From NCBI GenBank assembly GCA_001466705.2, contig LATX02000248.1:62001-126000 (forward strand): 64,000 bases of DNA, read 5' to 3'. Below are positions 22,985-63,100 of this stretch, piece after piece (position 1 is the first letter of the stretch; every line of letters starts with the position of its first letter). The notes under the pieces were generated by a model. That model was not told where the DNA came from, did no database searches, and saw only the letters and a list, made by a program, of their open reading frames with translations. Source of the DNA: Moniliophthora roreri (Eukaryota > Basidiomycota > Agaricomycetes > Agaricales > Marasmiaceae). The translations under genes and the position numbers were made by a program.

Positions 22985-23528
22985 CGTGGATGAAAATCAG
23001 AGGATGAACTGATTTCATGATAAAGTACATACCATGATATTCAAGCGCAGCAAGCCGCAGCAACGTGTAGGAATTGGATAAAGAGAGAAAGGACAATAAT
23101 CGTGGACGAGTCAAGGTGAATTGCCGCATTAAGGCATCAACTTTTTCAACGTGCGCGATTGTCGACTTGTTCATGTCCCGAAATCTCCGTGCTGATGCCT
23201 TCCCTTCTTCCCTCAGTACCCAGTCTTTGCCCATCGAGTTCGAATTTCTGTTATCTCTTTCGTGCAGAAAGGTGTATCTAAGAATTCTTACCTGAATAGG
23301 CCGTGCGAGGACGCTGTGCAATTTGGCACTCAAGTAATTGACTCATAATCTGGCATTGTTCTCGCGATCGTGTAGAAAATTTCCAGGGGTGCTTACCCGT
23401 CTTATATAGTACAATGTTCGCTCAGATACCAAACAACATCCAACTCCGGTGTATCTTGATGCTCGATTTGGGTATATATACATAGTCATAAAATCATAAA
23501 ATGCGTCCGATACATTCCCTTTGAGACT
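22985..23528. other. 5' flank of kinase A with a conserved upstream open frame
   Basis: A 118-codon open frame without a good ATG runs on the minus strand from 23333 to 22977 and overlaps the kinase start (GATGTCTAG holds both the ATG and the TAG). The same frame is preserved upstream of copy B. It contains GKDWVLREEGKASARRFRDM. It may be an upstream ORF, part of an alternative 5' exon, or simply recently duplicated DNA. Confidence 0.45.
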
Positions 23529-25276: not shown

Positions 25277-26406
25277 CGTCAGTAGAGAGCGTAGAGAAGA
25301 AAGAGTGACGGGACAACCGAACTAGAAATGGGGGTAGGTGCTGGCACCAATGGTTGACATTTGCCCTTGTAGGCGCCCACCTGTCATAATCATTGACTCC
25401 GAGATACTGTAAGCCGGAGCCTGCGGAGGACAAGTTCTGCGTGAATGGCAGATGAGACGCGCACCTGACAAGGTCGACGCGTCTTGCTTTCATGCACCCA
25501 ACATCTGCCACGTCACTCCGCCTTCACTCGAAGATTTTCGACCCCTCCCACCACTCCCTTGTGTATTTGGGCATTCCAGTTGGTCCTGATCTCGGATATT
25601 CACATACTCGGTTGGCCTGGGCCCCATTCGGGGTTCCTGCGGTGGGTTTTGGGTCCTTTCGTCCTCCTAGGTAGGTTTCCATCCGCCACCGCTCTCCCAG
25701 GCCAGCCTCCGGCACACACTGTTTCAGATGAAGATTGTCCTTATTGATAACCTTTACCTAGGACAATCTTCATAGCTTTATCATCCGCTCATCGTGAATC
25801 GAGTAGAACTTATCAGGACCACCGTCATCTTGTAGCTTGCTGTAATTGAAGTACCTCAGAGTCTTCAAGATTCATATGCTCTTGGACCGATTTTTCCGCT
25901 GATATTTGTTGCTAGTTATTTCACCGTCGCCATTCCTTAATTCTCCGCTGGCTTCTCCCCGAGATAACAGTAATATATGATCAAGAGTCAGGGAACAAAG
26001 GTTCTTCAATTGCGGTTTTTCGGACAAGCTGATGCCAATCATAGGGTACGCGGCCATTAGATCAAATGAACACAGGGGTATTAATGCTCGCAGCCTGATT
26101 CATCTGTCAGGCTGTTTAACCGGCCTTCGATAAGGTTAGACAATGCCTAGGAATTCTTGCATCAACCCAGAGGTACGTTGCATTGATGTTCTATTCAGAG
26201 GATTTAGTTCACTATGTACATCCCGGATAAATAGCAACCGAATCCCATCCATGAAGTCCAAACTGGCACCACGAAATCAGAACGAAACAATCTAGAAATC
26301 ACCTCATTGTAGACGCAGTGTAGCACGGGAGCCGGGCCCAGGTGCCGTTTCCTTCCTGCCCCTTATAATGAATCGCTTTTTCAGACCAATTCGATCCAAA
26401 CCCATC
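25277..26406. other. Divergent promoter region between channel and methyltransferase
   Basis: About 1.1 kb shared by the bestrophin gene (minus) and methyltransferase 1 (plus). It contains the perfect inverted repeat listed separately. No gene recognised. Confidence 0.45.
25728..25773. repeat. Perfect 14-bp inverted repeat
   Basis: ATGAAGATTGTCCT (25728-25741) and AGGACAATCTTCAT (25760-25773) are exact complements with an 18-base loop. It lies in the divergent promoter and may be a hairpin or a paired binding site. Confidence 0.85.
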
Positions 26407-28083
26407 ATGGGCAGTACCCACCTCCTGGCCCTCACATCCCTTATCACCTCTGCTGTTGAAGACCTCATTTCGTCTCAGCACCCAATTCCTCCGCTCAACT
26501 CGGTCGACCCAACACCCTTCGACGCGACTGGTCCTGAATTATTGTCCTCGAACGTCACTCGAGCGATTGCAACCATAGAAGCTGCGTGCACGCAGCTCAT
26601 ATGTACCGTATCCAATCCCGGGAGCGTCTTGTTGACCAAGTCGCTTGCTCACGAAGAGTCTGCGTGTCTCTCGCTTGTCGTTGAAACAAAAGTTGCGGAC
26701 TTCCTGGTCGATAAACCTGAAGGAGTGAATGTAGAAGAATTGGCAAAGAACACTGGTATCAAAGATGCGGGAAAGTTAGGGAGGATCATGAGACTGTTGG
26801 CGACGAGGCACGTTTTTCGCGAAGGTGAGTCTGCAGGGCATCTTCATTTGGCCTTGAGACTGATGATGCCCGTGGTGGATAGTCAAACCGGGAGTATTTG
26901 CGAACAACAGGTTGAGTGCAAAACTCGTTTCTAATAATCCGACATCTGATATTGTGTCATTGCTGTATGTTGACTCTTCATGGACAAATAAACTTCCACT
27001 GACATCTGTTAGGACCGGTGAATCTCTACTTGCGTCAGCACATCTTGGCGAGACCCTCGCCACCACCTACGAAGGACCAGAAATACCATTTGAGCGTGCT
27101 ACAGGCCACGCGTTCTTTGACTACTACAAAACGGTGCATTAGCTCATATCGTTTATAACCCAGACTGCTAAACTTAGTGCTTGTTTCAGGAAAAAGGAAA
27201 GAAACAAGGTGCACGCTTCCCTCGAGCAATGATTGGCTGGGGAGATATCACTGGGAAGGGATTCTTACAGAAAGGTATGTTATTCTGCTTTCCCGTGGTC
27301 GGTCGGTGTTGCCTCAAACCGTGATAGTTTACCCGTGGACTTCTTTGCCGCTGGATACGACTGTCTGCGACATTGGAGGCGGAAACGGCCATGTGACAAT
27401 GGGTCTGATGCGCGCGCATCCGCACCTTAAAGTCGTTCTGCAAGACCAACCCCAGGTCATTGAGCAGGCCAAATCGTTTTGGAAAGAACATCATCCTGAG
27501 GCGTTAGAGGCGCAGAGGATAGAATATGTTCCATTCGACTTCTTCAAAGATGCAGCGGCTGAAGGGTGTGATGTGTACTACGTGCGTACATCCTCGTTCT
27601 TTTCCATGCCACGTATCTAACACTATGGACATCTAGATTCGTTCTGTCCTGTGCGTTATTCCTAGTTTCTCCGTTTAGTGTCTATCTGACTCACCACCGC
27701 AGACGTGACTGGCCCGACGAAGAATCACTGCGTATCCTCGAAAATGTTCGCAAAGCCATGTCTCCAAACAGCCGTTTGATCATCCACGATACCGTGCTCC
27801 GTCCGTCGACAAGTGGTTCAGCTCCCTCTCCATTGCTATCCAATTGGGGAGCAGCAAAGGCACGAACATACGAGATGGACTTGATCATGATGAACCTGCT
27901 GGGCGCTAAAGCAAGAACACTTGATGAATTCAAGGCGCTGTGGTGAGTGAATTGGTCAAGCATTGGTAGTCGTGATCTTGACTGAAACTGACTCGACACG
28001 ATCGCAGTGAAAAGGCGAATTTGAAATATGAAAGAATGTACGAAGCAGGCGAAACGGATTTGGTAGAATTCATTCTGGTTTGA
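26407..28083 (+). CDS. SAM-dependent O-methyltransferase 1 (plant COMT-like fold)
   Basis: Class I methyltransferase of the O-methyltransferase family 2 type. The start at 26407 (MGSTHLLALTSLI) was preferred over ATG 26368 because it aligns with the start of the paralogue at 41054. Exon 1 is the helical dimerisation region (AACTQLICTVSNPGSVLL; VADFLVDKPEGVNVEELAKN; LGRIMRLLATRHVFREG). Later exons give NNRLSAKLVSNNP, FERATGHAFFDYYK, the SAM motif TTVCDIGGGNGHVTMGLM, then HLKVVLQDQPQVIEQAK and PFDFFKDAAAEGCDVYYVRS. The last exons hold LILHD-type IIHDTVLRP, NWGAAKARTYEMDLIMM and DLVEFILV with TGA at 28081-28083. Substrate is unknown; relatives methylate small phenolic or polyketide hydroxyls. 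It is a paralogue of 39234-41054. Confidence 0.85.
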
Positions 28084-28564
28084 CAGGCTGTAATCTGTTG
28101 CTTGCCGTGTTGTAACTCCTTTCATTCAGTAAACGTCGCGTTTCACCCGCTTGGTCCGGTGTCCAAATGTGTCTGTTCCGCCTTGATTCTGGCTGGCTAT
28201 TACTAACTCCCGACGCGTGTTCAATAGACTCATGCAATGTAAATCCGACAATAGGGAGGAAGACTCTTACACTATCCCGTTGCCACCCATCCTTCAACGA
28301 AGAACAAATCCAAGCAGACTGCGAGCCTAGCTTCGTCAACAACGCTCTCCGGTCTGACTGATACTCGTGCTGGATTGTGACTTTGGCTTGCAAGACCTGT
28401 TTCCCGCCCTGTTGTGCGGGGTATATTCTGTTCAGATTGCCATGAGGACCTCCATACTTGCTCTGATTATGGAGTTACGGCAAATACATTTTAGGCTCGT
28501 CAACGGCACTGCACTAGTCCTTTTCCATTCTTAATCTTTGCTCCCAACCATCATCGCCATCTCT
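28084..28564. other. Intergenic
   Basis: 3' end of methyltransferase 1 and upstream region of the small membrane protein. Nothing recognised. Confidence 0.4.
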
Positions 28565-29025
28565 ATGCCTCCGTTCTCCTTTATCGCCTCTGCCATTCTC
28601 TCCCTTTTGATGTGGCCGTTCAACGCCGACCTTGAAGTCGATAGGAACAAATTGTTCATCGATACCGAAAGCTGTCAAGATTGGCGACAGTATGCTTCAA
28701 TATCATGTCCCACTGTTCGCTGATGCTGACTCGAGAAACCAGGTGTATGGCTCAGCTCTCGGGTGTAGAGATTACAGTATGCGTCGTGCTCTCATTCTTG
28801 TGTGGTGAGTCTCTCGCAGTAACGTCGAGCTGAACCTCACTAACGCCACTGCCTCTCACAGTAACTCAGTTCGTTACCTTCCTTTTTGTTTGGAAATATC
28901 GCCAAAGGACGCCTCCTATTTTCTCCAACGGGTTGGTACCTTCTGCGTGGGTACCGTCTGACCTTGAGTCCGAGGCGCTGAGTCATGAGAAGGACTCGGT
29001 GTTCCATTCTCCGAGTCGTACGTAG
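28565..29025 (+). CDS. Small membrane protein, unknown
   Basis: Three exons join cleanly. The ATG at 28565 opens MPPFSFIASAILSLLMWPFN, a signal-anchor-like start. Exon 1 ends at a GTATGC donor after CQDWR. Exon 2 (from TGT ATG GCT after AACCAG) encodes MAQLSGVEITVCVVLSFLC. Exon 3 encodes TQFVTFLFVWKYRQRTPPI, then a polar tail ending HSPSRT with TAG at 29023-29025. The product has about 115 residues, one or two membrane helices and a short polar C-terminus. I do not recognise the family. Support comes from consistent splice sites and the continuous hydrophobic segment across the second junction. Confidence 0.5.
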
Positions 29026-29884
29026 CCCTCAACCTTCCTTCTTAATGAAACTCAGCTCATCATCGCTCGGCTTAGGATCTGCCTAGGTCATTCTCTTCAC
29101 CGCTTCGTGTGCTTCCTTCTCGAATGTCCTCGGCTTCAGAACCCCTATGCTATAACTCTTTCTACTACTTCCGACGAACGAATGCGAATCGTACACACTA
29201 CTCTCGGTTCAGCATGTCTATACTACGTGTTACATCACATGAAAACTAGTCCACATAGTACACGATTTTGTGTATCCTTGCGAATCTTCCAAAAAGTATT
29301 GCAAATTAGGTGAGTGTAGGGAAATCGAGTCTTCAATGGATGCATATCCGACAAGCGAGAATTTCGGGGCATCAAGTCAACAATCCCACACGTCGAAAGA
29401 ATTTTGGGAGAAGTTGGTGTTGGTACCTTAATTAGCCATTCCATCTTGGCTCGATCTGATACACGAGCACTCCATGAGGCTTGTTGAAGAAGTTCTACAC
29501 CCCGAGAACAATGGCAGATAATGAGTCAGTAGTACTTGAGTGCCAAATTGCACAGCGTCCTCGCACCGTCTATTCAGGTAGGAATTCTCAGATACACCTT
29601 TCTGCACGAAAGAGGTAACAGAAATTCGAACTCGATGGGCAAAGACTGGGTACTGAGGGAAGAAGGGAAGGCATCAGCACGGAGATTTCGGGACATGAAC
29701 AAGTCGACAATCGCGCACGTTGAAAAAGTTGATGCCTTAATGCGGCAATTCACCTTGACTCGTCCACGATTATTGTTCTTTCTCTCTCTATCCAATTCCT
29801 ACACGTTGCTGCGGCTTGCTGGGCTTAAATATCATGGTATGTACTTTATCGTGAAATCAGTTCATCCTCTGATTTTCATCCACG
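29026..29884. other. Intergenic with duplicated 5' flank of kinase B
   Basis: From about 29456 the sequence matches the upstream regions of kinases A and D (CTGATACACGAGCACT, TTCTACACC). It includes the same 118-codon upstream frame (29536-29892) seen before kinase A, so the duplicated unit begins well upstream of the start codon. 29026-29455 holds nothing clear. Confidence 0.5.
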
Positions 29885-32526
29885 ATGTCTAGCTCACCGG
29901 CAGTTGAATCAGAAGTTGCAAGTATCAGTCATCAGAAAGCAAGGAAGCAGAACATCCAAGACCTTGGTCCCAGCGTTCCAGAGGTATCATTTCAGTGGTT
30001 CAAGGCCGCCGTACTGCCACACGTAGAGGACACAAAGCTCGCCGAAGTATATGATGCACTCGAGGAGGATCAGGAGCTGTCAGATGAAGGGTGGACTGGG
30101 TTGGAATTTGAAAAGTTGAAGCGGAAGGGTAAGGGTGCGCAGAGCGGAGTTGGGCAGGCTGGTAAAGGCCAAGGGACGCCAGCTCTCGACGCTGTGCAGG
30201 AAGAACAGGAACAGGGGAATTCTACGGGTCAAACCCCAACAGACGAGGACACGCTTTACAAACCGCTAGCTGGAAAATTCAACAAGGTCCTCGAGCGTAC
30301 CGAGGAAGTGACTGGTAAATCTCCGCTCATCACGTTCTGCAGCACACCTACGAAAGCTTCCAAGTCTGAGGGTGATAATGGAGGCTACAAGGCTGATATC
30401 AATGCGTTGCTTCTTAAAACCACAGCTGTTGGAGGCGAGGCAGGGAAGGCAAACCATGAATGCGACATTGTGGTGACAGGCGAATTCAAGAAACTCGTGA
30501 ACGACAAAGTCCGCAATGATGTGAGTGATTCTATATTCTTCGTTTGATATGTTACTCATTCAAGTTGATACTATACAGAACGTCTCGAAACTTGTCGGCA
30601 ACGTTAACCATCTTATGGGATCAGATCCTACTCGTCGATTTTCGTATGGTTTGACTATAGAGCACACCGATACAAGATTCTGGTTCTTCTCAAGATCTCA
30701 TATCTTTGTAACGGAAAAGCTCGACTTGCAAAAGGTAGGAATGATTATCGTTCGTAGCGAACTCTCTCTAATATGAGTTTTCCATAGAACATCAAAGATG
30801 TAATTTATTTCGTTATGGCCCTTGGATCCGCGAGCTGCAACGCAGAGCTCGGCTTTGATCCCACAGTTCGGAGAGTCCAAGAGCCGCTAGGCCGTTATGG
30901 CAAGCCCGAAACGCGATATCGGTTCAAGGTTAGCGGATACGAATATGAAACCGTGGAACCTATCAGCGTCTACAAAGCCAAGTTTCTGTTGGGCCGCGCC
31001 AATCGTGTGTTCAAGGTCCAACGCGTCGAAAACGGGGTACTGGTCGGCCCTACATTGGTCCTAAAGGACTTGTGGCTTCCCGAAGGGGCGAAAACGGAGC
31101 TCGAGATCCAACAGGATATCAAGAACAACATCAACAAGGTCCACATTGTCGAAGGTCTCGACCCTGCCGACTTTGAGAAGTACTTCGTCACCATTGAACA
31201 TTGCGAAATCGTAAAGGTTCCTTCGATGACCGAGTCATGCGACTCCGACGACAACTCCACGAACTTTCTTCGAGGGAATGTCTTGCCTAGCGCTAAGAAG
31301 CATTTCTGCCTGAAGCTCTCCATGTCGGACTACAAGCGTCCTCCATCACATGTAAGCGGCTCCCAGATGTCGACGCCAAAGGGTAGTGTCCTCTCTGGGC
31401 ATAGAGCTCAGACGCGAGAGATGCTCAGGCTTGCTCGAGAGCACTACGGCAACAAAGCTCATCATCGTATCTTGATGGAAGATGCTGGGAAACCGCTTGA
31501 AGATATCCGTGAGCTGCGAACAATACTGTTGTGTATTGGACAAGCCAGCACAGGCGAGTTCCATTTTTTGTGACACACGCATCTTCTCATTGTTGATCAG
31601 GGCTATCAATTATGTTTTCTGCTGGTATGGTCCACAGAGACATTAGCACTGGTAATTTGTTGGTTTCCGAGGTCGATGGAGAGCTAAGATGCAAAATCAC
31701 CGACCTCGAGTACGCCAAGAAGGTCGGTGAGAGTTCTCGGTCTCCGCAGGATGTTAAAACAGTACGTATGACTTCAACTTCGAGTTACTTATGGACTGAT
31801 GGGCTTGACTAGGGAACACCCTTCTTCATGGCTTTGGAAATAGAGGCCGGAAATTATCTTTTCTCCTCTCAAAAGGAGACGTTTCCTGAGTCCGAAATCC
31901 TACTCGACCCTAGCAATTTACTCAGATCCGTCCTAGCAAACGAAAGCACTCGCGATAAAACAGACACACCATCTCTCGTCCGATATAACTACCTTCACGA
32001 TCTCGAGTCCCTATTTTGGATCCTCATGTACTTCCTCTTCATCATGCACCCAGAGGACGACGAGCTCGATGAGGCAATCATTTCTCACCGCATGCGCAAA
32101 TTCAGGAAGCTGTTTCCTTCATCCCTTGGTTTCGAGGATTTCCCTTACAACGGTGCTCGCATCGAGTTTCTGAGGGGCAACGCAGGTGTTCAGTTGGAGT
32201 TTGCATCTTCCGTCCCAGAGCGATTCCGCGTCACCCTACAATTTGCCACCTTTATTGCCAAATTCTTGAAGAAAGAATACGAGCGAGTAGAGGCATCGTC
32301 CCAGCTAACTACCGACAAATACTCCTCTGAACCATATAAACTCCTCCACTCCTATCTCGATGTCCTTGCAAGCGCGAAGGAGGGAGTTTGGCTGGGTAAG
32401 GTGGTCGAAATTCCGGAGAAACTTGTCGGAGGTACAAATGGGAGTGAGCAATCCACGGCTAATGCAAAGCGAAAAGCCGAAGAGCTTTTGTCCATCAAAG
32501 AAGGGAAGCGCAGTAGACAAGGCTGA
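29885..32526 (+). CDS. FunK1 fungal-type protein kinase, copy B
   Basis: Full-length family member of about 810 residues. Exons: 29885-30520, 30579-30734, 30788-31553, 31601-31761 and 31813-32526. Exon 1 is a charged N-terminal region (DTKLAEVYDALEEDQELSDE). Exon 3 holds the N-lobe with TLVLKDLW. Exon 4 holds GMVHRDISTGNLL and ITDLEYAKK. Exon 5 holds GTPFFMALEIEAG, NYLHDLESLFWILMYFL and a basic tail KRKAEELLSIKEGKRSRQG that could be a nuclear localisation signal. Intron 3 starts with GC (CACAG|GCGAGT) where copies A, C and D have GT. Exons 1-4 are almost identical to copy A, while exon 5 differs greatly. It is the first of three tandem genes. Kinase activity is plausible (Lys and HRD present), though DLE replaces DFG. 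Confidence 0.9.
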
Positions 32527-33022
32527 CAAGTTATGCGATTTCGTTGATCAATCCTCGTGTATATAGCAAATGTGCCATCTCGTATGTATCTATGTTTATA
32601 CTATTACATTACACAGAATAGTCCCCGTACATGGTTTTCTGTATCCTTGGAAATCGTTCTAGATTGCAAGTTTGTTGCAGGAATGGGTAACGCCAGGATT
32701 CCGGGCCCAAGCAGTTTAGTGCTAGCAGGCGCAGTTATGCAACGCTGACAGAGCACCAAGGGTGTCTAAGCCTCTCGGTCAGACTCATGAGGTAGAGGGT
32801 GGTAGTCAATGACCGTTCTCCGTCAGATTGACGTTGACCGGTCAAGCTTCAAGCCGGTCAAGAGTTGCAGCTTATCGTGGTCGCGGAACTTGGACTCGTC
32901 CACGACTATTGTTCACTCTTTCTCTGTCCAATTCCAACACGTTACTGTGGCTCGCTGGGTTTAAATATCATAGTCTGTACTTTATTGCTGAAATCCAGTT
33001 TATTCTCTAATTTTCGTCCACG
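32527..33022. other. Intergenic between kinases B and C
   Basis: 3' flank of B, then the promoter of C. From about 32890 it resembles the flanks of the other copies (TCGTCCACGA, TCTCTGTCC), but the upstream frame is broken. Confidence 0.4.
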
Positions 33023-35731
33023 ATGTCTAGCTCACCAGAAATTCCTACGCCGCCGCCTCAGCAGACGACCCACACCAGTACGCACACGGAGAAGGAAAGC
33101 CCTCGAGTTGCACGTATCAGTCATCAGAAAGCGAGGGAGCAGGTCATTCAAGACCTTGGTCCCAGTATTCCAGAGGTATCATTTCAGTGGTTCAAGGCCG
33201 CTGTGCTGCCAGACGTAGAGGACACAAAGCTCGCCGAAGTATATGATGCACTCAAGAAGGATCAGGAGCTGTCAGATGAAGGGTGGACTGGGTTAGAATT
33301 TGAAAAGTTGAAGCGGAAGGGTGAGGGTGCGAAGAGCGGGGTTGGGCAGGCTGATAAAGGGCAGGGGACGCCAGCTCTCGACGCTGTGCAAGAAGAGCAG
33401 GCACAGGCGAAGTCTACAGCTCAGACCCCAACAGACGATTGCACGTTTTACAAACCGCTGACTGGGAAGTTCAACAAGGTTCTCGAGCGCACCAAGGAGG
33501 TTACTGGCAAATCTCCGCTCATCACGTTCTGCAGCACACCTACGAAAGTTTCCAAATCTGAGGGTGATAATGAAGGTTACAAGGCCGATATTAATGCGTT
33601 GCTTCTTACAACCATGGTTGTTGGAGACGAGGCAGGGAAAGCAAACCATGAATGCGACATTGTGGTGATAGGCGAACTCAAAAAACTCGTGAACGACAAA
33701 GTCCGTAATGATGTGAGTGATTCTACATTCTTCTTTTGGTATGTTATTCATTCAACTATACAGAACGTCTCCATGCTCGTCGACAAAGTTAACCATCTCA
33801 TGGGATCCGATCCTACTCGTCGATTTGCGTACGGCTTGACTATAGAACACACCGATACAAGATTCTGGTTCTTCTCAAGATCTCATATCTTTGTAACGGA
33901 AAAGCTCGACTTGCAAAAGGTAGGAATGATTATCGTCCGTAACTCTCTCTCTAATATGAACTTTTCCATAGAACATCAAAGATGTAATCTATTTTGTTAT
34001 GGCCCTTGGATCCGCGACCTGCAATGCAGAGCTAGGCTTTGATCCCACAGTTCGGAGAGTTCAGGAGTCGCTAGGCCGTAATGGCAAGCCCGAAACGCGA
34101 TACCGGTTCAAAGTTAATGGATACGAATACGAAACCGTTGAACCTATCAGCGTCTACAAAGCCAAGTTTCTGTTGGGCCGCGCCAATCGTGTGTTTAGGG
34201 TCCGTCGCGTCGAGAACGGGGTACTGGTCGGCCCTACGTTGGTCCTAAAGGACTTGTGGCCTCCCGAAGGGGCGAAAACGGAGGTCGAGGTCCAACAGGA
34301 TATCAAAGACAATATCAACAAGGTCCACATTGTCGAAGGTCTCGACCCTGCCGACTTTGAGAAGTACTTCGTCACCATTGAACATTGCGAAATCGTAAAG
34401 GTTCCTTCGATGACCGAGTCGTGCAACTCCGACGACAACTCCACGAACTTTCTTCGAGGGAACGTCTTGCCTAGCGCTAAGAAGCATTTCTGCCTGAAGT
34501 TCTCCACATCGGACTACAAGCGTCCTCCATCGCACGTAAGCGGCTCCCAGATGTCGACGCCAAAGAGTAGTGTCCTCTCTGGACACAGAGCTCAGACGCG
34601 AGAGATGCTCAGGCTTGCTCGAGAGCACTACGGCAACAAAGCCCATCATCGTATTTTGATGGAAGATGCTGGGAAACCGCTTGAAGATATCCGTGAGCTG
34701 CGAACAATACTGTTGTGTATTGGACAAGCCAGCACAGGTGAGTTCCAATCATTGTGAAACACGCGTCTTCTCATTGTTGATCAGGGCTATCGATTATGTT
34801 TTCTGCTGGGATGGTTCACAGAGACATCAGCACCGGTAATCTGCTGGTTTCCGAAGTCGATGGAGAGCTAAGATGCAAAATTACTGATCTCGAGTACGCC
34901 AAGAAGGTCGGTGAGAGTTCTCGGTCTCCGCAGGATGTTAAAACAGTGCGTATGACTTCAACTTCCAGTTACTTATCGACTGATGGGCTTGACTAGGGAA
35001 CACCCCTCTTCATGGCCTTAGAGATCGACACCGGATATTACCACTTCAAGCCGCAATTCCCTTCGAATGAAAACCAGATTGACGTTACTGTTGAGGATGC
35101 AATCGAGTCCGTGTTTGCCGATCTTGACCTTAAACGTCGTCCCCTTGAAAACATCGTTGCTGTGGACCACGTCCAATTCAACTTCCTCCACGATGTTGAA
35201 TCCTTGCTCTGGATTCTGATGTACTTCCTTCTCTTCATGCACCCAGAAGATGACCAAATCACGAAAGATGACGCTGACAGGCGTTTATACAAATTCGAGG
35301 GGTTATTCGTTAATTCTGGCATGACTACCGCTCGTCACATGTTTCTCCACGGAAACGCAAAGGTCGAAATGGAGATTGTCGAAACTGTTCCCGAACCATT
35401 CAAGATTCTCCTCGCATGTGTTATGTTCCTCGCCAAGCTGTTAAGGGGAGAATACGTTCGAGTCGAAGCTCTACCCGATTCCGCCTGTGACCCAAACTCC
35501 GCACAGCTATATACAAGGTTGCGGGCCTTTGTGGATCGGGTACTCATGAGTGAGAAAGCGGGTCGCCTTGGACGAATGGTAGAGCTTACCGCAAGGAACT
35601 CTGTGGTTCTGCAAGCCGATCAGGAGACTGTTCGTGCGCAGAGTTCCATTGGTGAGAAGCGAAGAGGCGAAGCAGTCACTGATGGCTTGTCTACGAAGGA
35701 AAGGCGGCCCAAGCGCAGTAGACAGGGTTGA
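33023..35731 (+). CDS. FunK1 fungal-type protein kinase, copy C
   Basis: Same five-exon plan as copy B. The N-terminus has a unique insertion after MSSSPE (IPTPPPQQTTHTSTHTEKES) before the shared VARISHQKAREQ. Exon 3 has TLVLKDLWPPEG, exon 4 GMVHRDISTGNLL with ITDLEYAKK, and exon 5 GTPLFMALEIDTGYYHF, NFLHDVESLLWILMYFL and the basic tail ending KRSRQG. Exons 2-4, and even the intron before exon 5, are close to copy B, but exon 5 is closer to copy D. The gene therefore looks like a mosaic of two paralogue lineages. All introns have GT-AG ends. No stops or frameshifts were noticed. Substrates unknown. Confidence 0.9.
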
Positions 35732-36273
35732 GAAGAAAATGCAGTTTTCACTGTCCGATTTCTGTCGTAAAAGAATGTTTATATATCGAGATCTCTACCA
35801 TCAAAATATACTTGCATTAGATGTTTTCTGACGCCCGAACCGACGTTGCTGATTGGCTGAGTTGATTTGAGAAGTTGGAAGAACGATCTGATACACGAGC
35901 ACTATAAGACTTGTTGAGAAATTTCTACACCCCGGGAAACAGTACTTGAGTGCAAAATTGCGTGGCGACGCCGTACTAGATCTTCAGGTAAAAATGTCCG
36001 GATACACCTCTCTGCACGAAAAAGACAACGGAGAAATCTGAACTTGACTGAGCACCGAGCGCGAGCATCAGCGCGGAGATTTCGGGACATGAACAAGTCG
36101 ATACTCGGCGGTCGCGCATGTTGTGCCTTATGCGGCAATTCCACCTTGACTCGTCCACGACCATTGTTCTTTCTCTCTGTCAAATTCCTACACGTTGCTG
36201 TGGCTCGCTGGGCTTAAATATCATGGTGTGTACTTTATCGTAGAATCAGTTCATCCTCTGATTTTCGTCCACG
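35732..36273. other. Intergenic between kinases C and D
   Basis: Contains the duplicated upstream block (CTGATACACGAGCACT near 35889). The upstream frame seen before A and B is degraded here by small deletions. Confidence 0.45.
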
Positions 36274-38919
36274 ATGTCTAGCTCACCGGCAGTTGAATCA
36301 GAAGTTGCACGTATCAGTCATCAGGAAGCGAGGGACCAAGTACTTGGTCCCAGTTTTCCCGAGGTATCATTTCAGTGGTTCAAAATCGCTGTGCTACCAG
36401 ACGTAGAGGACACAAAGCTCGCCGAAGTATACGATACACTCAAAAATGATCAGGAGCTGTCGGATGAAGGGTGGACTGGGTTGGAATTTGAGAAGTTGAA
36501 GCGGAAGGGTTACGGTAAGGGTACGCAGAGCGGTGTTGGTCACCCTGGTAAAAAGCAGAGCAGGCCAGCTCTCAACGCTGTACAGGAAGAGCAGGCACAG
36601 GGGAATTCTACGGGTCAAACCCCGACAGACGAGGACACGTTCTACAAACCGCTGGCTGGGAAATTCAACAAGGTCCTCGAGCGTACCGAGGAAGTGACTG
36701 GTAAATCTCCGCTCATCACGTTCTGCAGCACACCTACGAAAGCTTCCAAGTCTGAGGGCGATCATGGAGGCTACAAGGCTGATATTAATGCGCTGCTTCT
36801 GAAAACCACAGCTGTTGGAGACGAGGCAGGGAAGGCAAACCATGAATGCGACATTGTGATGACAGGCGAATTCAAAAAACTCGTGAACGACAAAGTCCGT
36901 AATGATGTGAGTGATTCTATATTTTTCTTTTGGTATGTTACTCATTCAACTATACAGAACGCCTCGAAGCTTGTCGGCAATGTTAACCACCTTATGGGGT
37001 CTGATCCTACTCGTCGATTTGCGTATGGTTTGACCATCGAGCACACCGATACAAGGCTCTGGTTCTTCTCAAGGTCTCATGTCTTTGTAACGGAAAAGCT
37101 CGACTTGCAAAAAGTAAGAATGATTGTTGTTCGTAATGAATTCTCTCTAATATGGAATTTCCTATAGAACATAAAAGACATAATCTATTTCGTTATGGCC
37201 CTTGGATCCGCGAGCTACAATGCAGAGCTCGGTTTTGATCACACAGTTCGGAGAGTCCAAGGACCGCCACGCCATGATGGCAAGCCTGAAACGCGATATC
37301 GGTTCAAGGTTAACGGGTACGAATACGAAACCGTGGAACCTATCAGTATCTACAAAGCCAAGTTTCTGTTGGGTCGCGCCAATCGTGTGTTCAAGGTCCA
37401 ACACATCGAGAACGGGGTGTTGGTCGGCCCTACGTTGGTCCTGAAGGACTTGTGGCTTCCCGAGGGGGCGAAAACGGAGCTCGAGATTCAACAGGGTATC
37501 AAAGACAACATCAACAAGGTTCACATTGTCGAGGGTCTCGACCCTGCCGATTTCGAGAAGCACTTCGTGGCCATCAAGCATTGTGAAATCGTGAAGGCTC
37601 CTTCGATGACCAAAGCGCTCGAGTTTGTTGAGGACAACTCCACGAACTTTCTTAGAGGGAAGGTCTTGCCCGGTGAGAAGAACTTCTGCCTCAAGCTCTC
37701 CACCTCCGACTACGAGCGTCCTCCGTTACACGTGAGCGGCCCCCAGATATCGACACCACAGGGTAGTCTCTTCTCCGAGCACAGAGCCCAGACCCGAGAG
37801 ATGCTCAGGCTCACTCGAGAGCACTACGGCAACAAAGCTCATCATCGTATCTTGATGGAAGATGCTGGGAAACCGCTTGAAGATATTCGTGACCTAAGAA
37901 TAGTACTGTTGTGTATTGGCCAGGCCACCACTGGTGAGTTTAAATTCTTGTAAGTTCTACATCTTCTTACGATTGATCAGGGCTTTCGATTATGTTTTCC
38001 GCCGGCGTGGTTCACAGGGACATCAGTACTGGCAATCTATTGATTTCGGAAGTAAATGGCGAACTCAAATGCAAAATCACTGACCTCGAGTACGCCAAGA
38101 AGGTTGGTGCGAGCTCTCAGGTTCCTCAAGATGCTAAAACCGTAAGTAATAATATAATGTTCATAGGCAGCTCACTGACCTGTTTTTTCCTAGGGCACGC
38201 CCTTCTTTATGGCCTTGGAGATCGAATCCGGATATTACCTCTTTAAACCACTACCACCCACAAAAGAAAACCCACAGCATAAAAGCTCTTTCCGGTCTGT
38301 TATTGCCGACCTTAACTCCAAGCGTCACGCTAGCACATCCGCTGCCACGGACCACGTCCGCTACAACTTCCTTCACGACGTCGAGTCCTTGTTCTGGATT
38401 CTGATGTATTTCCTTCTCTTCATGCATCCAGAAAACGACAAGATTACGGCTGACGATGCTCAGAAGCGTTTGCACAAATTTCACAAGATATTCGTTTACT
38501 CTACGGGCATTAATGGTGCGACCACTGCTCGTGCCGAGTTTCTCAAGGGAAATGCAACAGTAGAGATGGAGATTATTGAGACCGTCCCCGAGCCATTCAC
38601 TGCTGCTTTAGCATGTGCTGTCTTTCTTGCCACAGAGTTGAGGCAAGAATACGTTCGAATTGAGGCTCTACTCGGTTCGACCAACGACCCATATTCCGCA
38701 GAGCTGTACGCGAGTCTGCAAACCTACCTCGATGAAGCACTCACGAGTGAGGAGGCGGGTCGCCTTGGCCAAGTGGTAGAGCTCACCGCAAGGGCCTCCG
38801 CGCGTCTGCAAACCAATGAGACCGCTCGCGCAAAGAGTTCCATTGGTGAGAAGCGAAAAGGCGAAGCAATCGCTGGTGGTTTGTCGACGAAGGAAAGGAA
38901 GCGCAGCAGACAAGGTTGA
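36274..38919 (+). CDS. FunK1 fungal-type protein kinase, copy D
   Basis: Third tandem copy, the most diverged in exons 1-4. It starts MSSSPAVESEVARISHQ. Exon 3 begins after an AG near 37167 and contains FLLGRANRVFKVQHIENGVL and TLVLKDLWLPEG. Exon 4 has GVVHRDISTGNLLISEVNGE and ITDLEYAKK. Exon 5 has GTPFFMALEIESGYYLF, NFLHDVESLFWILMYFLL and a basic tail STKERKRSRQG. The stretch MTKALEFVEDNSTNF replaces MTESCDSDDNSTNF of the other copies. The intact HRD motif and candidate ATP Lys suggest a working kinase. It is followed by methyltransferase 2 in convergent orientation. Confidence 0.9.
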
Positions 38920-55182: not shown

Positions 55183-56656
55183 ATGGAGCAGTTCAGCTTT
55201 GACCTACCCCCAGACCATTTTCTCTCCCTTCCCCGCCCCGAGTCGTTTCAGCAACAATTAGTGGGCGCTGTCGACACAACCACACTCGCTGCTCATGATT
55301 TCGACGTCGACAATCGTTCAGGCTTTATGCCTCCACATCCACCCGTCGCACGTTTGCCCTCTGAATGGGAATCCTGGGAACAAATTTTAGATGCGGCGGT
55401 TGAGGAACGTCTTCAGTTGGGAGAAAAACCGGGTCTATCGATATCAGACAGGGAAAAGTCGGCGTTATGGCGAGCTCGCGTTCGAGAGGTGCGTTCAATG
55501 CCACGTAGAATTTTTATAGCTTGCGCTTAACGACGGACTCATTCAACAGTTGCCTATCCTACCGATTACAGAGCTCAGATCATCAGAAGTGATACTCCGG
55601 AGATCACACGTCGTGCTCGCATGGATCATGCATTTTTACATTCATACCATCCCTGCAGACGAGCCAATAGCTATCCCGCCACCTGTGACGATACCTCTGC
55701 TCCAGATTTGCGCTCACCTTCAATTACCGCCAGTTCTCACGTACTCTGACGACGTGTTGTACAATTGGGCGTTGAAGCGACCTTCAACGGCGCTTACCCC
55801 CGCATTCCACAATTTGAGATGCCAAACACTGTTCACCGGCCTCAGAGACGAGGAAGAGTTTTATCTTACCTCTGCACGGATCGAGCTTCGAGGTGTCGAA
55901 GCACTAGAGCTCATGCGAGCAACCATGGATGAAGCTTTCGTTGGTGACGACATTGCTATTCGACGTATCACGGGATTCCTCCTCCGTCTGGCCAAAGTTG
56001 TAGGAGAACTCAAATCTCTGTTGTTGGCCGTGCGTGAAGGTTGCGACCCAGAAGTTTTCTATAATGAGATCCGACCATGGTTCAAAGGAGTCGATTCCGA
56101 TGCAGCAAACAGTCGCAAGTGGATATTTGAAGGCTTGGACCAGGATCCGTCGTTATCAGAGCCTCAAGAGCTTTCCGGACCCAGTGCGGGTCAGAGTTCG
56201 TTGATACATGCTCTGGATATTTTTCTTGGCGTGGAGCAGTATTCTCATTCTGCTACCATCACAGGGTCGTCTACGTCACTGGACGTGGAGAGGGAGGAAG
56301 CGAAGAACCGGAAACAGGCATTTCTTAATCGCATGCAGCTATACATGCCTCGTCACCACCGAAACTTTCTCAATCATCTTAGATCGAATCCACGACCGCT
56401 TAGAGACATTGTTATCTCTTCTGGGGACTCCAAGCTTTTGGATGCCTACAATCAATCTGTTGCCGCGTTGAAAGAATTTAGGGACGCACATATCATTATT
56501 GTTACTTTATACATTGTTGGACCTGCTAGAAGGGCAAAGGTGGCAAAAGACCAAGAGGGGAGTCGGGATCCCGAGTCGCTGAAAGGGACTGGGGGAACTA
56601 ATCTGGCTAGATTCTTGAAGGATGTTCGAGATGGAACAATGGATGCTTTAATCTAG
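55183..56656 (+). CDS. Indoleamine 2,3-dioxygenase, copy 1
   Basis: Haem dioxygenase opening the indole ring of L-tryptophan to N-formylkynurenine, first step of the kynurenine pathway toward NAD. Exon 1 is 55183-55488 and exon 2 55550-56656, separated by a 61-base intron. Exon 1 has FDVDNRSGFMPPHPPVARLP and WESWEQILDAA. Exon 2 has LPILPITELRSSEVILRRSH, TLFTGLRDEEEFYLTSARIE, GCDPEVFYNEIRPWFKG, LSGPSAGQSSLIHALDIFLG and YMPRHHRNFLNHL, where the second His matches the proximal haem ligand of the family. It ends with LKGTGGTNLARFLKDVRDGT. About 470 residues, normal for fungal IDO. Paralogue directly downstream with the same intron position. Confidence 0.93.
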
Positions 56657-57919: not shown

Positions 57920-59326
57920 ATGTCAACCCAGGTTCACGACTCAAAGGCTTCAAAATGGCTTCAATCCATTGTCTTTGACGTGGATCCTAGGACAGGATTC
58001 ATGCCGCCAAAGGTTCCGCTGCAAAGGCTTCCTGGTGACTGGGAAGCATGGGAGACCCTGTTAGCTGAAGCAATCAGAGACCGCCTGGCGCCTGGAGACA
58101 AGATTGGCCTGTCTGACGCGGAGAAGAGCCTGTCTGCACGGTGGCGTGCATCTGTACGAGCGGTAGGTGTCTAACAGGTCGTGCAAATTGGGTCGTCACT
58201 GATCTGGGATTAGATGCCAGTGTTGCCTACTACGCAACTACTAAAAGCTGATGAACCCATGCTCTCGCGTCGCGCTCATCTCGTGCTGGCTTTCCTTCTT
58301 TCATTTTATGTGCAGACTCTCCCTCCTCAATCTCCCATCCTCGTTCCAAAACCCATTGCCATACCCCTTCTCCATGTGTCGAAATTCATCGGAATGCCAC
58401 CGGTTATCACGTATGCTGACTGTGTGCTATACAACTGGCAGACTGTCCCAAGCTTGACCGGCAATACCCGTGATTCGTCCATCACTGCCGCTGCCATCGA
58501 TCCTGACACACTCCATTGTCAAACCTTGTTCACTGGTCTTGGCGATGAAGAGGCATTCTACCTGTCATCTGCCAAAATCGAAATCCGGGGTGTCGAGGCT
58601 CTCGATATCATGCGTTCCACCATGGACGAGCTCTTTGTCAGTGATGCTATCGCCGTCGGCCGTGTAACAAAGTTGCTCGACCGACTCGCCCTCGTCATCC
58701 GGGATCTCAAAACCCTTTTGATGGACGTTCGTAAAGGCTGTGACCCCGAAGCGTATTACAGTCAAGTCCGCCCTTTCTTCAGAGGCCAAGATGCATCTCA
58801 CGAACAACGCAAGTGGGTATTTGAAGGTATCGAAGAGTATCCCGAGTTGGTCGAGTCGGATATTACAAAGGAGTTATCTGGGGCTAGTGCGGGGCAGAGC
58901 TCGTTGATATACGCCTTGGATGTCTTTTTAGGTGTCGAAGACGTCAGGTCGTCATCATTCATGGCGCGAATGCAAAAGTACATGCCAAGGAACCATCGAC
59001 TATTCTTGGATCACTTGTCTTCAAACACTCGGCCATTGAGGCAATTTGTGATGGAGAGGAATACACAGGGGTCGAGTGAGGAGTCGTCTTTGGTGGAGGC
59101 GTATAATGCGGCCGTCAAGGCTTTGAAAGAGTTTAGAGATGGGCATATGATTATTGCGAGTTTGTACATTATTGGGCCGGCTAGGAGAGCACGGAATGCT
59201 CTGGAGGATCGAGAGGAGACGATCAAGCTGAAGGAAAAGTCGTTAAAGGGAACTGGTGGTACTGATATGGTAAAGTTTTTGAAGGGAGTTCGAGATAATA
59301 CGATGGATTCGATGCTTGTAGCATGA
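57920..59326 (+). CDS. Indoleamine 2,3-dioxygenase, copy 2
   Basis: Tandem paralogue of copy 1 with the same two-exon plan: 57920-58162 and 58214-59326, intron 51 bases, at the equivalent codon. Starts MSTQVHDSKASKWLQSIV and continues FDVDPRTGFMPPKVPLQRLP. Exon 2 begins MPVLPTTQLLKADEPMLSRR. Key blocks: TLFTGLGDEEAFYLSSAKIE, GCDPEAYYSQVRPFFRG, LSGASAGQSSLIYALDVFLG, YMPRNHRLFLDHL with the His expected to bind haem, and LKGTGGTDMVKFLKGVRDNT. About 450 residues. The two proteins are similar throughout but clearly diverged, so the duplication is not recent. One copy may serve NAD synthesis and the other induced tryptophan breakdown; this split is speculation. Confidence 0.93.
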
Positions 59327-59435: not shown

Positions 59436-59466
59436 TGGTCCGTGCGCCATCAACTGGTCCGTGCGC
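59436..59466 (+). promoter_or_regulatory. Two 12-bp direct repeats upstream of U2
   Basis: TGGTCCGTGCGC occurs at 59436-59447 and 59455-59466, 19 bases apart start to start, just before the TATA box. It is a good candidate snRNA upstream element. Confidence 0.6.
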
Positions 59467-59477
59467 ATCTGGGAATG

Positions 59478-59484
59478 TATAAAA
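59478..59484 (+). promoter_or_regulatory. TATA box of the U2 snRNA gene
   Basis: TATAAAA lies about 26-30 bases before the likely 5' end of U2, the spacing expected for RNA polymerase II initiation. Confidence 0.7.
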
Positions 59485-59503
59485 GCGACCCGCAATCATT
59501 TTG

Positions 59504-59820
59504 ATTCCTTACCACTCTGGCCTTTTGGCTTAGATCAAGTACGTTTCATTTCCATTTCTGGTCTATTTGTTTTAAGCCGAAAGCTGACAATCCTCGCTTT
59601 AAACAGGTGTAGTATCTGTTCTTTATAGGTATGTGGTTTTTATACTACACTTACCATATATAGTGCTGATATTTCCTTTTTAATCCAGCTTAACCGCTAT
59701 AACGACCCCATCGGGGTCTGTTTTCGGTTATATAATTTTTGCCGCCCCCGTTCCTTGAGCTCTGCTTGCAACTCGAGGACACGATGACCTTGCTATTGCA
59801 GTGCCGGCTTGTGTCGTCAG
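59504..59820 (+). ncRNA. U2 spliceosomal snRNA, split by two introns
   Basis: Exon 1 (about 59504-59538) contains GGCCTTTTGGCTTAGATCAA: stem I and the U6-pairing segment. Intron 1 is 59539-59606 (GTACGT...ACAG, branch-like GCTGAC). Exon 2 (59607-59628, 22 nt) starts GTGTAGTATCTGTTC and carries GTAGTA, the part that pairs with the pre-mRNA branch site. Intron 2 is 59629-59688 (GTATGT...CCAG, branch-like GCTGAT). Exon 3 starts CTTAACCGCTATAACG. Joining exons 2 and 3 restores stem IIa, TTATAG pairing with CTATAA. GACCCCATCGGGGTC is stem IIb, ATTTTTG (59735-59741) the Sm site, and CTATTGCAGTGCC the conserved loop IV. The spliced RNA would be about 189 nt, close to fission yeast U2. The exact ends are estimates. 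An mRNA-type intron in U2 is already known from the yeast Rhodotorula. Confidence 0.92.
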
Positions 59821-59821
59821 G

Positions 59822-59841
59822 GGATCCTTTTCGGAGGATCC
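59822..59841 (+). terminator. Hairpin at the U2 3' end
   Basis: GGATCCT and AGGATCC pair perfectly around a 6-base loop, immediately after stem-loop IV. It may serve in 3' end formation, but this is inference. Confidence 0.4.
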
Positions 59842-60180: not shown

Positions 60181-63100
60181 AATGTTCTCCCATGAACAGA
60201 TTCCTCCTTATGGTAGCACCCTCTTACTGCACAACACAGCACTTTGTCTGCCAGCATATATGTACAACAATTGTAGTGAAATGCTTAATGAGGTCTGGTC
60301 CATATCACAATTAGTATGGAGATACATCTTTTTCTTGCAGATTCTGTGGAAGTCCAGTGATCTCACAACACAAATTCCAGTCACCACTACTACTTGGAGT
60401 AAATATCAGAGAGAACCACAGTATTCTGTACCTTGACACATTGTTTCAGCTTCTAACTGGCAACAGATTTATATCATACAGTTTAAGGGGGTAGTCTATT
60501 TTAGTGGCAACTATTTTGTATCTCAAATTATTGATACAAATAACTGGGTCTGGTTTCATGGTGGTATATCCTCTCTTCATAGTCAGAGAGGAAAATACAT
60601 ATTTAATGCTGACCTTAATATCTTGTTGTTAGATATAAGCAGGTGCTGACAACAATATACTATCCATAAACCTATTAGAATTTCCTATAGCTACTTTTCT
60701 GGCTTTCTTCCTCTTTTTGAGTGCTTTTTGAGCCAAAAACAGCCCAAAAGGCACTTCAAAACAGCAAAAAAGCCAGAAAAGTGGCAGGATTCATAAGAAA
60801 TTCTAATGCACTGCCTCTGCCTAGAAATGCCAATTTTGATAGAAATGAATCTCTATCATTATCAATCCTCAATAGTTCTCTGCTACAAATTTATTTTGGA
60901 TGCTTTAATGTATTGTCTCAAAATCTGCTGACTTATACTTATTAAATATAATAAGGAAGAAATAGAATGGATTTTACAATCTGGGCAATAATAGTTTTTC
61001 AGTGTGTGACAGTGAATTTCAGGCTTTGGTTGAGATGGAGACTGGGTGAATATGCACCAAAGTTGGTATATACACTTGAATACATGTTACCTTAAGCTAA
61101 AAAATGCTCCAATGGCAAAACAATCTCATAGTATGAAATGCAATGTTGAAAGAGTAGAAGTGTAAAGCAAGGTTGAATAATTTTTGAACTCCACCTGCCA
61201 TGAGCAATTCTGAATGTAGAATGTGTCACTTGCATTTGCACTCACCATTCATCTTGCTCACTATCTGCCCACAGGGCAGATAGACAGGGTATGCAGGCCA
61301 ATAAATTTCCTTCTTTAAATCCTTTGGAGCTCAAGAGTCAGTTGAACTTCAAGAAGCAGCACAAGAAGGGCAATGACTGTTCTGTCACTGTCTATACTAG
61401 TATTGCAATGTCAGTAGAGGGCTAGGCAGCTGTGGAAGGCAACTAGTTGCAGCTCTGAACTATAGTCAACAATATTTTTCTAGGCACTTCTGGTTGATTG
61501 ATAGTAAAGTATTCTTCACAATGTACATAGCTGATAGTTATGTGACCATGAGAAGGTTTGCTATATTTTGTCCACAGGTGACATCACCAGGCTATAAACT
61601 CTGCAAAGGTAGGCTAGTTGAGCCATGTTCATATAGGGGACAGCAGGTGTTAGATATCCTCTGAGATCTAAACAAGACATCTTAATCAGTCATTGAATGG
61701 TTTCAAAAAAAAGCATGACTTGCTGCTGAGAATTATTCAACCTTATCTCTTTTATGTACTGCCAGCAAAGAAAAACTTGAATGACAGGGCCATGCTTGTC
61801 CCAATCAATGATAATAAAGTAGATATTCTACAGTGTAAGGCTTGATTAGATTTCTAATAGTTGTGAAGCAATATGCTAACTTACACTCCATTTAGGCATT
61901 TATATGGCATGACCTTTTCCCTACTTCTGGTAACAACAATTGATTCTGGCTGCTGCCCTTGGTTCCACATCACACAAATCATAAAGTGCATACAAAGTTG
62001 CTGCAATAGAATTTGTGAGCAAAAAGAATGGAGAATTGAGTTACAAATAAGTACCTGGTGTGTGTACTTAAACCTAAAATCTGAATCAAGCAATTTCAGC
62101 ATTTGGTTTTCCAGGTCAGATGGTTGGACAGTTTGCTTTTTGTGTGTCCTGGTCATAATTGCATGCTCTCTAAGAGCTAGTACATTGATAAACTGCAACT
62201 GGATTAGTAGAGGTCAATGTTGAGAGCAGAGACACAAATGTTTGTCAACTGCTTCACATGGTGTTGTAGTAAAGAGATGTTTGTTCTTTGGTACTACTAT
62301 GAAAAGCAATTGTTAGCCCATCTGCATATGGTTAAATCTGCAAGACTCACTATAGTTGAAAAATTGCCATGAAAGCACTTCAAGGTTGAAAGAGACCATC
62401 CATCAGCACCCAGATATGACTGTCCAGTTCTTGCCTGAAACTCATAGTAGGCTTTGACGACTTCAAGTGGAATGGGTTCTCCATCTGGTTGCAGAGAGTT
62501 TTTGAATGGTGTTTTATTGTTTGGATTCTAAATTATCCCAAGAAAACAAATGAAATTGTCATGAATCTAAAGGCAATTATCAGTCAGAATGGCATTTTGA
62601 TTGAGTGCTTCAAGCTCTATACAAATGTACTCCAACTCTGTCAACTCCATGACTACCTTGTGATGTGTTATGTCTCACAATGCAATGTTTGCCTATATAG
62701 TATCAATCTCTCTGAACTTTGCCAGCTGTGTTTCAAATGCCTTTCCATTGTCTCTCTGGTTTGGTTTTGGGTGCTTGCTGACCTGCCTGTTCTCTGAAGT
62801 GCTGATTTCAGAGACAGGCCTCTTCAATGGAGCATCTCTGGTAACCTTGAAGGTTACATGTAGAATAGATAAATTCCACAGCTCTGTATCAAAAAAAACA
62901 GTATGGTTGTTATAAAGTAGGGTTCTGTTGTGTGAGGCCATGACTGACACTCTGACTTGACTTGCTGAACCTGAGATGATGCCTTGTGATGCCAGCATAA
63001 ACAGAACATTGTGAAGAACAGTAGTCTTGTCAATCTCTGTTAGAGAAAGTAAATCAGTTTTATTTGTGGTGAGCTTGAAAGACTTGTCCAAATTGCAATT

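What the first reader, a model, noticed from the sequence alone, without database searches (positions are those of the whole stretch)
59504..59820. U2 snRNA gene interrupted by two spliceosomal introns, with the branch-site-pairing segment on a 22-nt exon
The sequence shows all U2 landmarks (stem I, GTAGTA, stems IIa/IIb, Sm site, loop IV), but they become contiguous only after removing 59539-59606 and 59629-59688. Both introns have mRNA-type ends and branch-like motifs. The second intron lies inside stem IIa, and splicing restores perfect pairing TTATAG/CTATAA. U2 is itself needed for splicing, so this RNA depends on its own product. An mRNA-type intron in U2 is known from Rhodotorula; two introns bracketing a micro-exon in a mushroom may be undescribed.
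Basis: partly seen in the sequence, partly recalled or inferred. Interest (0 to 1): 0.88.

Follow-up and report, generated by a model that had tools for sequence, protein, structure and literature searches.

The report
Self-dependent U2 RNA gene, two introns
In a mushroom-forming fungus the gene for U2, an RNA the cell needs to cut introns out of other RNAs, is itself broken up by introns, so the cell seems to need ready-made U2 in order to make new U2.

Summary
Window 59511-59823 is a U2 snRNA gene (Rfam U2, 58.9 bits with the inserts in place), cut by a 68-nt and a 60-nt GT-AG intron around a 22-nt exon that carries the branch-site-binding sequence. The organism is most likely Moniliophthora roreri (neighbouring protein identical). 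Two compact paralogues in the same genome support the gene model: both are continuous where the window has intron 2, and both carry intron 1 at exactly the same place. In the spliced form, 29 stem pairs hold in all three genes (87 of 87 cells) and six have changed on both sides, one of them in stem IIa across the intron-2 junction. So this copy has evolved as a working U2, not a pseudogene. No uninterrupted U2 was found in the 59.4-Mb assembly, so U2 there seems to depend on U2-driven splicing. U6 and U5 match as compact genes; U4 is compact at the one locus seen. Precedents exist: the Rhodotorula U2 intron and fission-yeast U6. Two introns, and interruption of every complete U2 copy found, are the new points. 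Transcription and splicing were not tested.

The parts
59436..59466 (+). two copies of promoter element TGGTCCGTGCGC (59436-59447, 59455-59466)
   Evidence: 67 exact sites in the genome against 4 for the reversed pattern; also before the paralogous U2 genes, a U4 gene and a U1-like gene; not specific to snRNA genes
59478..59485 (+). TATA box (TATAAAAG)
   Evidence: sequence; TATA-like sequence aligns there in C67 and C134
59511..59538 (+). U2 exon 1 (stem I, GATCAA U6-pairing strand)
   Evidence: 28 of 28 identical to C67 and C134; 5' end inferred
59539..59606 (+). intron 1, 68 nt, GTACGT...CTGAC (59584-59588)...AAACAG
   Evidence: same insertion point at all 4 exon-1 hits of the genome; Rfam U2 consensus is continuous here
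59607..59628 (+). U2 exon 2, 22 nt, with branch-site recognition sequence GTGTAGTAT and 5' arm of stem IIa (59623-59628)
   Evidence: 21 of 22 identical to C67 and C134
59629..59688 (+). intron 2, 60 nt, GTATGT...CTGAT (59666-59670)...ATCCAG
   Evidence: absent from C67 and C134, present in C72 (82% identical) and C100
59642..59650 (+). ATACTACAC, perfect complement of exon-2 GTGTAGTAT, inside intron 2
   Evidence: 86 of 20000 shuffles have a Watson-Crick complement of 9 nt or more, but 198 of 1000 do when G-U is allowed; TACTAC at the same place in C72 and C100; function speculative
59571..59583 (+). intron-1 stretch able to pair (13 bp with G-U) with exon-1 59522-59534
   Evidence: 1 of 1000 shuffles as long with G-U, but 205 of 1000 for the Watson-Crick part alone (6 nt); not significant in C134, marginal in C67
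59689..59823 (+). U2 exon 3: stem IIa 3' arm (59697-59702), IIb (59704-59718), Sm site (about 59733-59741), stem III (59752-59779), stem-loop IV
   Evidence: 118 of 136 aligned positions identical to each paralogue; compensatory changes in IIa, IIb and III; 3' end inferred
59822..59841 (+). 3' hairpin GGATCCT/AGGATCC after stem IV, possible 3' end or processing signal
   Evidence: similar hairpin in C67 and C134 by eye; role inferred

Best explanation
A genuine U2 snRNA gene, probably transcribed by RNA polymerase II from a TATA-containing promoter. Two ordinary U2-type spliceosomal introns must be removed by existing spliceosomes before the transcript can become U2. Shown here: the gene model, the paralogues, the shared intron 1, the lineage-specific intron 2, and structural constraint on the joined exons. 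Inferred: transcription, splicing in the cell, and the feedback that follows (new U2 needs old U2, so U2 must be passed on through spores and mating and its supply is self-reinforcing).
For: Rfam U2 match at the locus. Paralogues C67 and C134 have no intron 2 and have intron 1 at the same base. Exons 28/28, 21/22 and 118/136 identical to each paralogue, against 33/68 and 37/69 for intron 1. 87 of 87 cells paired over 29 stem pairs, with six double-sided changes. Full splice signals in 4 of 4 introns of the three intact genes. No continuous U2: the exon-1 pattern (up to 3 mismatches) gives 4 hits, all followed by an intron start; of 17 exon-2 pattern hits (up to 2 mismatches) 5 are U2 copies, 4 exact and one with 1 mismatch, all preceded by intron-1 sequence. 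TATA and a shared upstream element.
Against: No RNA data were available. Stem IV's upper helix and one loop-IV base look weaker in this copy than in its paralogues (sequences). Two related two-intron copies are dead (C72 truncated; C100 interrupted and CpG-depleted), so the lineage does decay. The genome-wide U2 model search scored only 46 of 1296 candidates, and assembly completeness is unknown. The stems were chosen on this copy's letters, and C67 and C134 agree at all six changed pairs, so they amount to about one independent comparison.
Confidence: 0.86

Rival explanations
1. The window copy is a young or silent pseudogene; C67 and C134 (intron 1 only) make all U2.
For: Diverged exon 3 (118/136), weaker upper stem IV; sister two-intron copies are dead.
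Against: Six compensatory double changes and unbroken stems; intact TATA and upstream elements; CpG ratio of the window normal at 0.84. Even if true, intron 1 in C67 and C134 keeps the self-dependence.
Confidence: 0.1
2. An intronless U2 gene exists but is missing from the assembly, so the interrupted genes are dispensable.
For: Assembly completeness unknown; 154 contigs.
Against: Three complete and three damaged copies were found and none is continuous; intron 1 is kept in all complete copies, with a similar branch context.
Confidence: 0.06
3. The inserts are not spliced but tolerated as expansion segments, or removed by another machinery.
For: None found beyond the lack of RNA data.
Against: GT-AG ends with a CTRAY branch motif, 19-20 nt between its A and the intron end, in all four introns of the intact genes; intron 1 separates the U6-pairing from the branch-pairing strand and intron 2 opens stem IIa; no U12 over the cut-off, in line with a survey that finds U12 splicing missing in Basidiomycota (passages of PMC2846911).
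Confidence: 0.03

Closest known systems
mRNA-type intron in Rhodotorula hasegawae U2 (Takahashi et al. 1993; seen only as a reference line in PMC2586383; details recalled from the abstract)
   Same: Spliceosomal intron in a U2 gene of a basidiomycete, close to the branch-site recognition sequence; about 60 nt (recalled).
   Different: One intron there, just downstream of the recognition sequence (recalled); here two, one on each side of it, and intron 1 in every complete U2 copy found.
Fission-yeast and other fungal U6 introns (passages of PMC10484740, and PMC5832005)
   Same: A spliceosomal RNA that needs splicing to mature; intron near catalytic nucleotides; reverse splicing proposed as origin.
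   Different: That is U6 (Pol III); here the 6 U6 loci over the cut-off each match over 117 nt without an intron-sized gap and U2 is the interrupted one.
Fungal U3 snoRNA introns (passages of PMC5832005)
   Same: Structured non-coding RNA with mRNA-type introns; four U3 genes in three species have two; paralogues with and without an intron can coexist.
   Different: U3 is not part of the spliceosome, so there is no self-dependence.

Membership tests
U2 spliceosomal snRNA (RF00004) | match to the U2 covariance model above the curated score | tested here: met
   58.9 bits against 46 on the unspliced locus; paralogues 69 and 68
U2 spliceosomal snRNA (RF00004) | branch-site recognition sequence GTAGTA after GATCAAGT in the mature RNA | tested here: met
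   present once intron 1 is left out; matches the Rfam consensus printed
U2 spliceosomal snRNA (RF00004) | stems IIa, IIb and III plus Sm site | tested here: met
   60 of 60 cells paired in IIa, IIb and III with six double changes; AATTTTTG
U2 spliceosomal snRNA (RF00004) | expressed, capped, assembled into snRNP | not testable with these tools
   no RNA or protein data
U2-type spliceosomal introns | GT-AG ends, branch motif, exact restoration of the host sequence | tested here: met
U2-type spliceosomal introns | observed removal from RNA | not testable with these tools
   no reads available
Rhodotorula-type U2 intron (same position, common origin) | same insertion site | not tested
   the 1993 paper is not held; position recalled only
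Mobile introns (introner-like elements) | many similar copies in the genome | tested here: not met
   intron 2 matches only itself and C72, intron 1 only itself; these searches missed the diverged homologous introns of C100, C67 and C134, so only a family of close copies is excluded

The most novel reading that the evidence does not exclude
The introns are a gate. In the unspliced transcript of the two-intron lineage, exon 1 pairs with intron 1 and the branch-recognition strand on the 22-nt exon pairs with intron 2, so U2 cannot touch branch sites until splicing has released it. Both introns sit next to strands that lie at the heart of the active spliceosome, as expected if they arrived by reverse splicing into U2 at work. 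U2 output would then be set by U2 itself.
Probability: 0.14. Interest if true: 0.82.

Novelty: new variant of a known kind. Interest (0 to 1): 0.63.

Why it matters
If the genes are spliced as predicted, a species has put its whole U2 supply behind its own splicing reaction. That makes U2 an inherited, self-sustaining component and gives a natural case for testing how spliceosome levels are controlled. It also supplies two intron sites (one shared by all complete copies, one confined to a lineage) next to the U6- and branch-pairing strands, which bears on the reverse-splicing model of intron gain. Copies with introns 1 and 2, with intron 1 only, and decayed copies lie in one genome, so the order of events can be tested with sister species.

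Tried and rejected
Related species: exact patterns from exon 1 and exon 2 were scanned over prokaryote genome contigs (1 locus) and viral contigs (5 and 3 loci). The contexts of all 9 loci show chance matches, not U2. The whole-genome tool states that this genome has no relatives there, so conservation across species could not be tested.

Introner-like mobility: intron 1 and intron 2 were searched against the genome; no family of close copies. The same searches missed the diverged introns of C100, C67 and C134, so diverged copies are not excluded.

snRNA-only promoter element: TGGTCCGTGCGC is strongly enriched (67 sites against 4) but is not snRNA-specific. 30 of the 67 sites were fetched as loci. 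Rfam at gathering scores on 20 of those 30 gave only two tRNAs; a later call on 7 loci (5 of them from these 30) found U4 in L055. U1 was recognised by eye (ATACTTACCT after a TATA box, L031 and L057; the U1 5' end is recalled). The Rfam U1 model matched nothing in the genome at E up to 1, and L031 had no match.

Precursor pairing as a general rule: not supported. In one search, C147 intron 1 gives 13 bp with G-U (1 of 1000 shuffles as long), 6 nt Watson-Crick only (205/1000), expected pairs 18.1 against 4.4 (1/300). C147 intron 2 gives 9 nt Watson-Crick (4/1000), 9 with G-U (198/1000), expected pairs 15.0 against 8.4 (8/300). C100 intron 1 (dead copy) 0/1000 both ways. C67 49/1000, 485/1000 with G-U and 70/300. 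C134 765/1000, 679/1000 and 131/300. C72 intron 2 192/1000, 294/1000 and 45/300. In C147 the predicted fold does not form the ATACTACAC helix (probability 0.0 for the one pair checked; the last five bases of the recognition strand pair elsewhere); in C72 that pair has 0.97. No correction for several comparisons.

Literature: all 10 searches used. By title and start of abstract none listed a report of introns in U2 of mushroom-forming fungi, but the library is open-access only and the two key papers are not held.

Full report
What is there. Window 59511-59823 (+) encodes U2 snRNA. Rfam finds it at 58.9 bits (gathering 46) although the DNA is interrupted; a separate sub-threshold U2 match (20.2 bits, E 0.32) covers exon 1. 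It is the only Rfam gathering match in the window. Reading the exons as 59511-59538, 59607-59628 and 59689-59823 gives the continuous Rfam-type string GATCAAGTGTAGTATCTGTTCTT, stem IIa, stem IIb, an Sm site, stem III and loop IV. Start and end of the RNA are inferred from the TATA box (59478-59485) and from the paralogues.

Which organism. The next named hits are Paramarasmius and Marasmius.

All U2 copies found. The genome-wide model search gave three loci over the cut-off: C67, C134 and the window copy C147 (46 of 1296 candidates scored). A DNA search with the window gene added C72, C100 and C101. Read by eye and by alignment: C67 and C134 are complete and have one intron (59 and 61 nt) at exactly the window's intron-1 site, and none at the intron-2 site. 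C72 keeps intron 2 and the 3' end of intron 1, but lacks exon 1 and part of stem IV. C100 has both introns but is interrupted in exon 2 by a stretch of about 1.5 kb with inverted-repeat ends, in a region nearly without CpG (observed/expected 0.02 over 6 kb, against 0.84 in the window). C101 is a degenerate fragment. So there are three intact and three damaged copies.

No continuous U2. The exon-1 string with up to 3 mismatches occurs 4 times (C67, C100, C134, C147), each time followed by an intron start. The exon-2 string with up to 2 mismatches occurs 17 times. Five are U2 copies (4 exact, C100 with one mismatch), each preceded by intron-1 sequence. The other 12 have two mismatches and none lies at an exon-1 hit; their contexts were not read, and the reversed control gives 26 hits. 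All complete U2 genes found in this assembly therefore carry intron 1.

Splice signals. Intron 1 is GTACGT..CTGAC..CAG in the window, GTGAGT..CTAAC..TAG in C67 and GTGAGT..CTGAC..TAG in C134. Intron 2 is GTATGT..CTGAT..CAG. 19 or 20 nt follow the branch A in all four. Of seven introns listed there, five meet the full rule; C72 intron 2 lacks CTRAY and C100 intron 1 starts GTGCAT, both in damaged copies. Background for the rule in the window is 38 of 7918 GT..AG segments.

Evidence for function. Exons are far more alike than introns and flanks: 28/28, 21/22 and 118/136 against intron 1 at 33/68 (C67) and 37/69 (C134), 140 bases upstream at 79/149 and 92/144 aligned columns, and 120 bases downstream at 72/120 and 83/124. 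Over 29 pairs of stems I, IIa, IIb, III and the base of IV, 87 of 87 cells pair in the three intact genes, and six pairs changed on both sides (one in IIa, two in IIb, three in III). Sliding the 3' arm of IIa or IIb by 1-2 bases leaves 3-10 of 18 cells paired and no double change; the other stems were not slid. The IIa change links exon 2 with exon 3, so selection acted on the joined RNA. Cautions: the stems were picked on the window copy's letters, C67 and C134 agree at all six pairs, and the upper stem IV, not counted, looks weaker in the window copy.

Other spliceosomal RNAs. Six U6 loci over the cut-off match over 117 nt each, without an intron-sized gap (alignments of two read); two further weak U6 matches (19.7 bits) lie under the cut-off. 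Three U5 loci match compactly, and one U4 gene is compact (U4 was not searched genome-wide). Two U1-like loci were recognised by eye only. No U12 reaches its cut-off. So the introns seen in this set are in U2.

How it most likely works. An upstream element shared with U4 and the U1-like genes, and a TATA box, drive the transcript. Existing spliceosomes, containing U2, remove both introns. Stem IIa can then form and the branch-recognition strand joins the U6-pairing strand. The consequence is a positive loop: no U2, no new U2. This chain is inferred; no RNA was examined.

Where the introns sit. Intron 1 falls between GATCAA, which pairs with U6 in the active spliceosome, and GTGTAGTA, which pairs with the branch site (established knowledge of the spliceosome, recalled). 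Intron 2 falls between the 5' arm and the loop of stem IIa. The U6 literature explains an intron near catalytic nucleotides by reverse splicing (passage of PMC10484740). The present sites fit that idea but do not prove it. Intron 2 was seen in one group of copies only (C147, C72, C100); gain or loss cannot be told without an outgroup.

A speculative extra. Intron 2 contains ATACTACAC, the exact complement of exon-2 GTGTAGTAT, and intron 1 of this copy can pair with exon 1 over 13 bp including G-U. Shuffles make these rare in the window copy under one measure each (86/20000 for 9 Watson-Crick nt; 1/1000 for 13 bp with G-U) but not under the other (198/1000 with G-U; 205/1000 Watson-Crick only). 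The paralogues' intron 1 shows little or nothing, and the predicted fold in C147 pairs only the last five bases of the recognition strand well, with other partners. This is kept as the novel case only.

Known or new. A U2 intron in Rhodotorula hasegawae is cited in PMC2586383 (reference line only; its abstract is recalled as one 60-bp intron just downstream of the recognition sequence). [quoted passage not shown] Ten searches of the open-access library listed no report of introns in mushroom U2, which is weak evidence of absence. I therefore file it as a new variant of a known kind: two introns around a 22-nt exon in one lineage, and intron 1 in every complete copy found.

Noticed in passing
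60660-60820: Long imperfect inverted repeat (mir-3910-like hairpin to Rfam, 37.6 bits against a cut-off of 95), with similar sequence at 11 further places in the genome; looks like a small hairpin transposable element (MITE).
   Followed up: partly
21296-38919: Array of related ORFs in both orientations, some nearly identical by eye; one that was tested matches Pkinase_fungal (FunK1-type).
   Followed up: partly
55550-56656 and 58214-59326: Two neighbouring indoleamine 2,3-dioxygenase genes just upstream of the U2 gene.
   Followed up: partly
L024 (G000:C100:137000-143000): Damaged two-intron U2 copy with an inserted element of about 1.5 kb in exon 2, in a region with CpG observed/expected 0.02: sign of RIP-like or methylation-driven decay. 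L025 (C101) shows low CpG (0.14, 0.04) over two thirds of its length.
   Followed up: partly
L031, L057: U1-like snRNA genes (ATACTTACCT after a TATA box and the TGGTCCGTGCGC element). The Rfam U1 model found nothing in the genome at E up to 1.
   Followed up: partly
L046, L049: Two related loci with the same upstream element and a TATA box, followed by a similar stretch of roughly 150-200 bases with no Rfam match in it: possible unannotated structured RNA.
   Followed up: no
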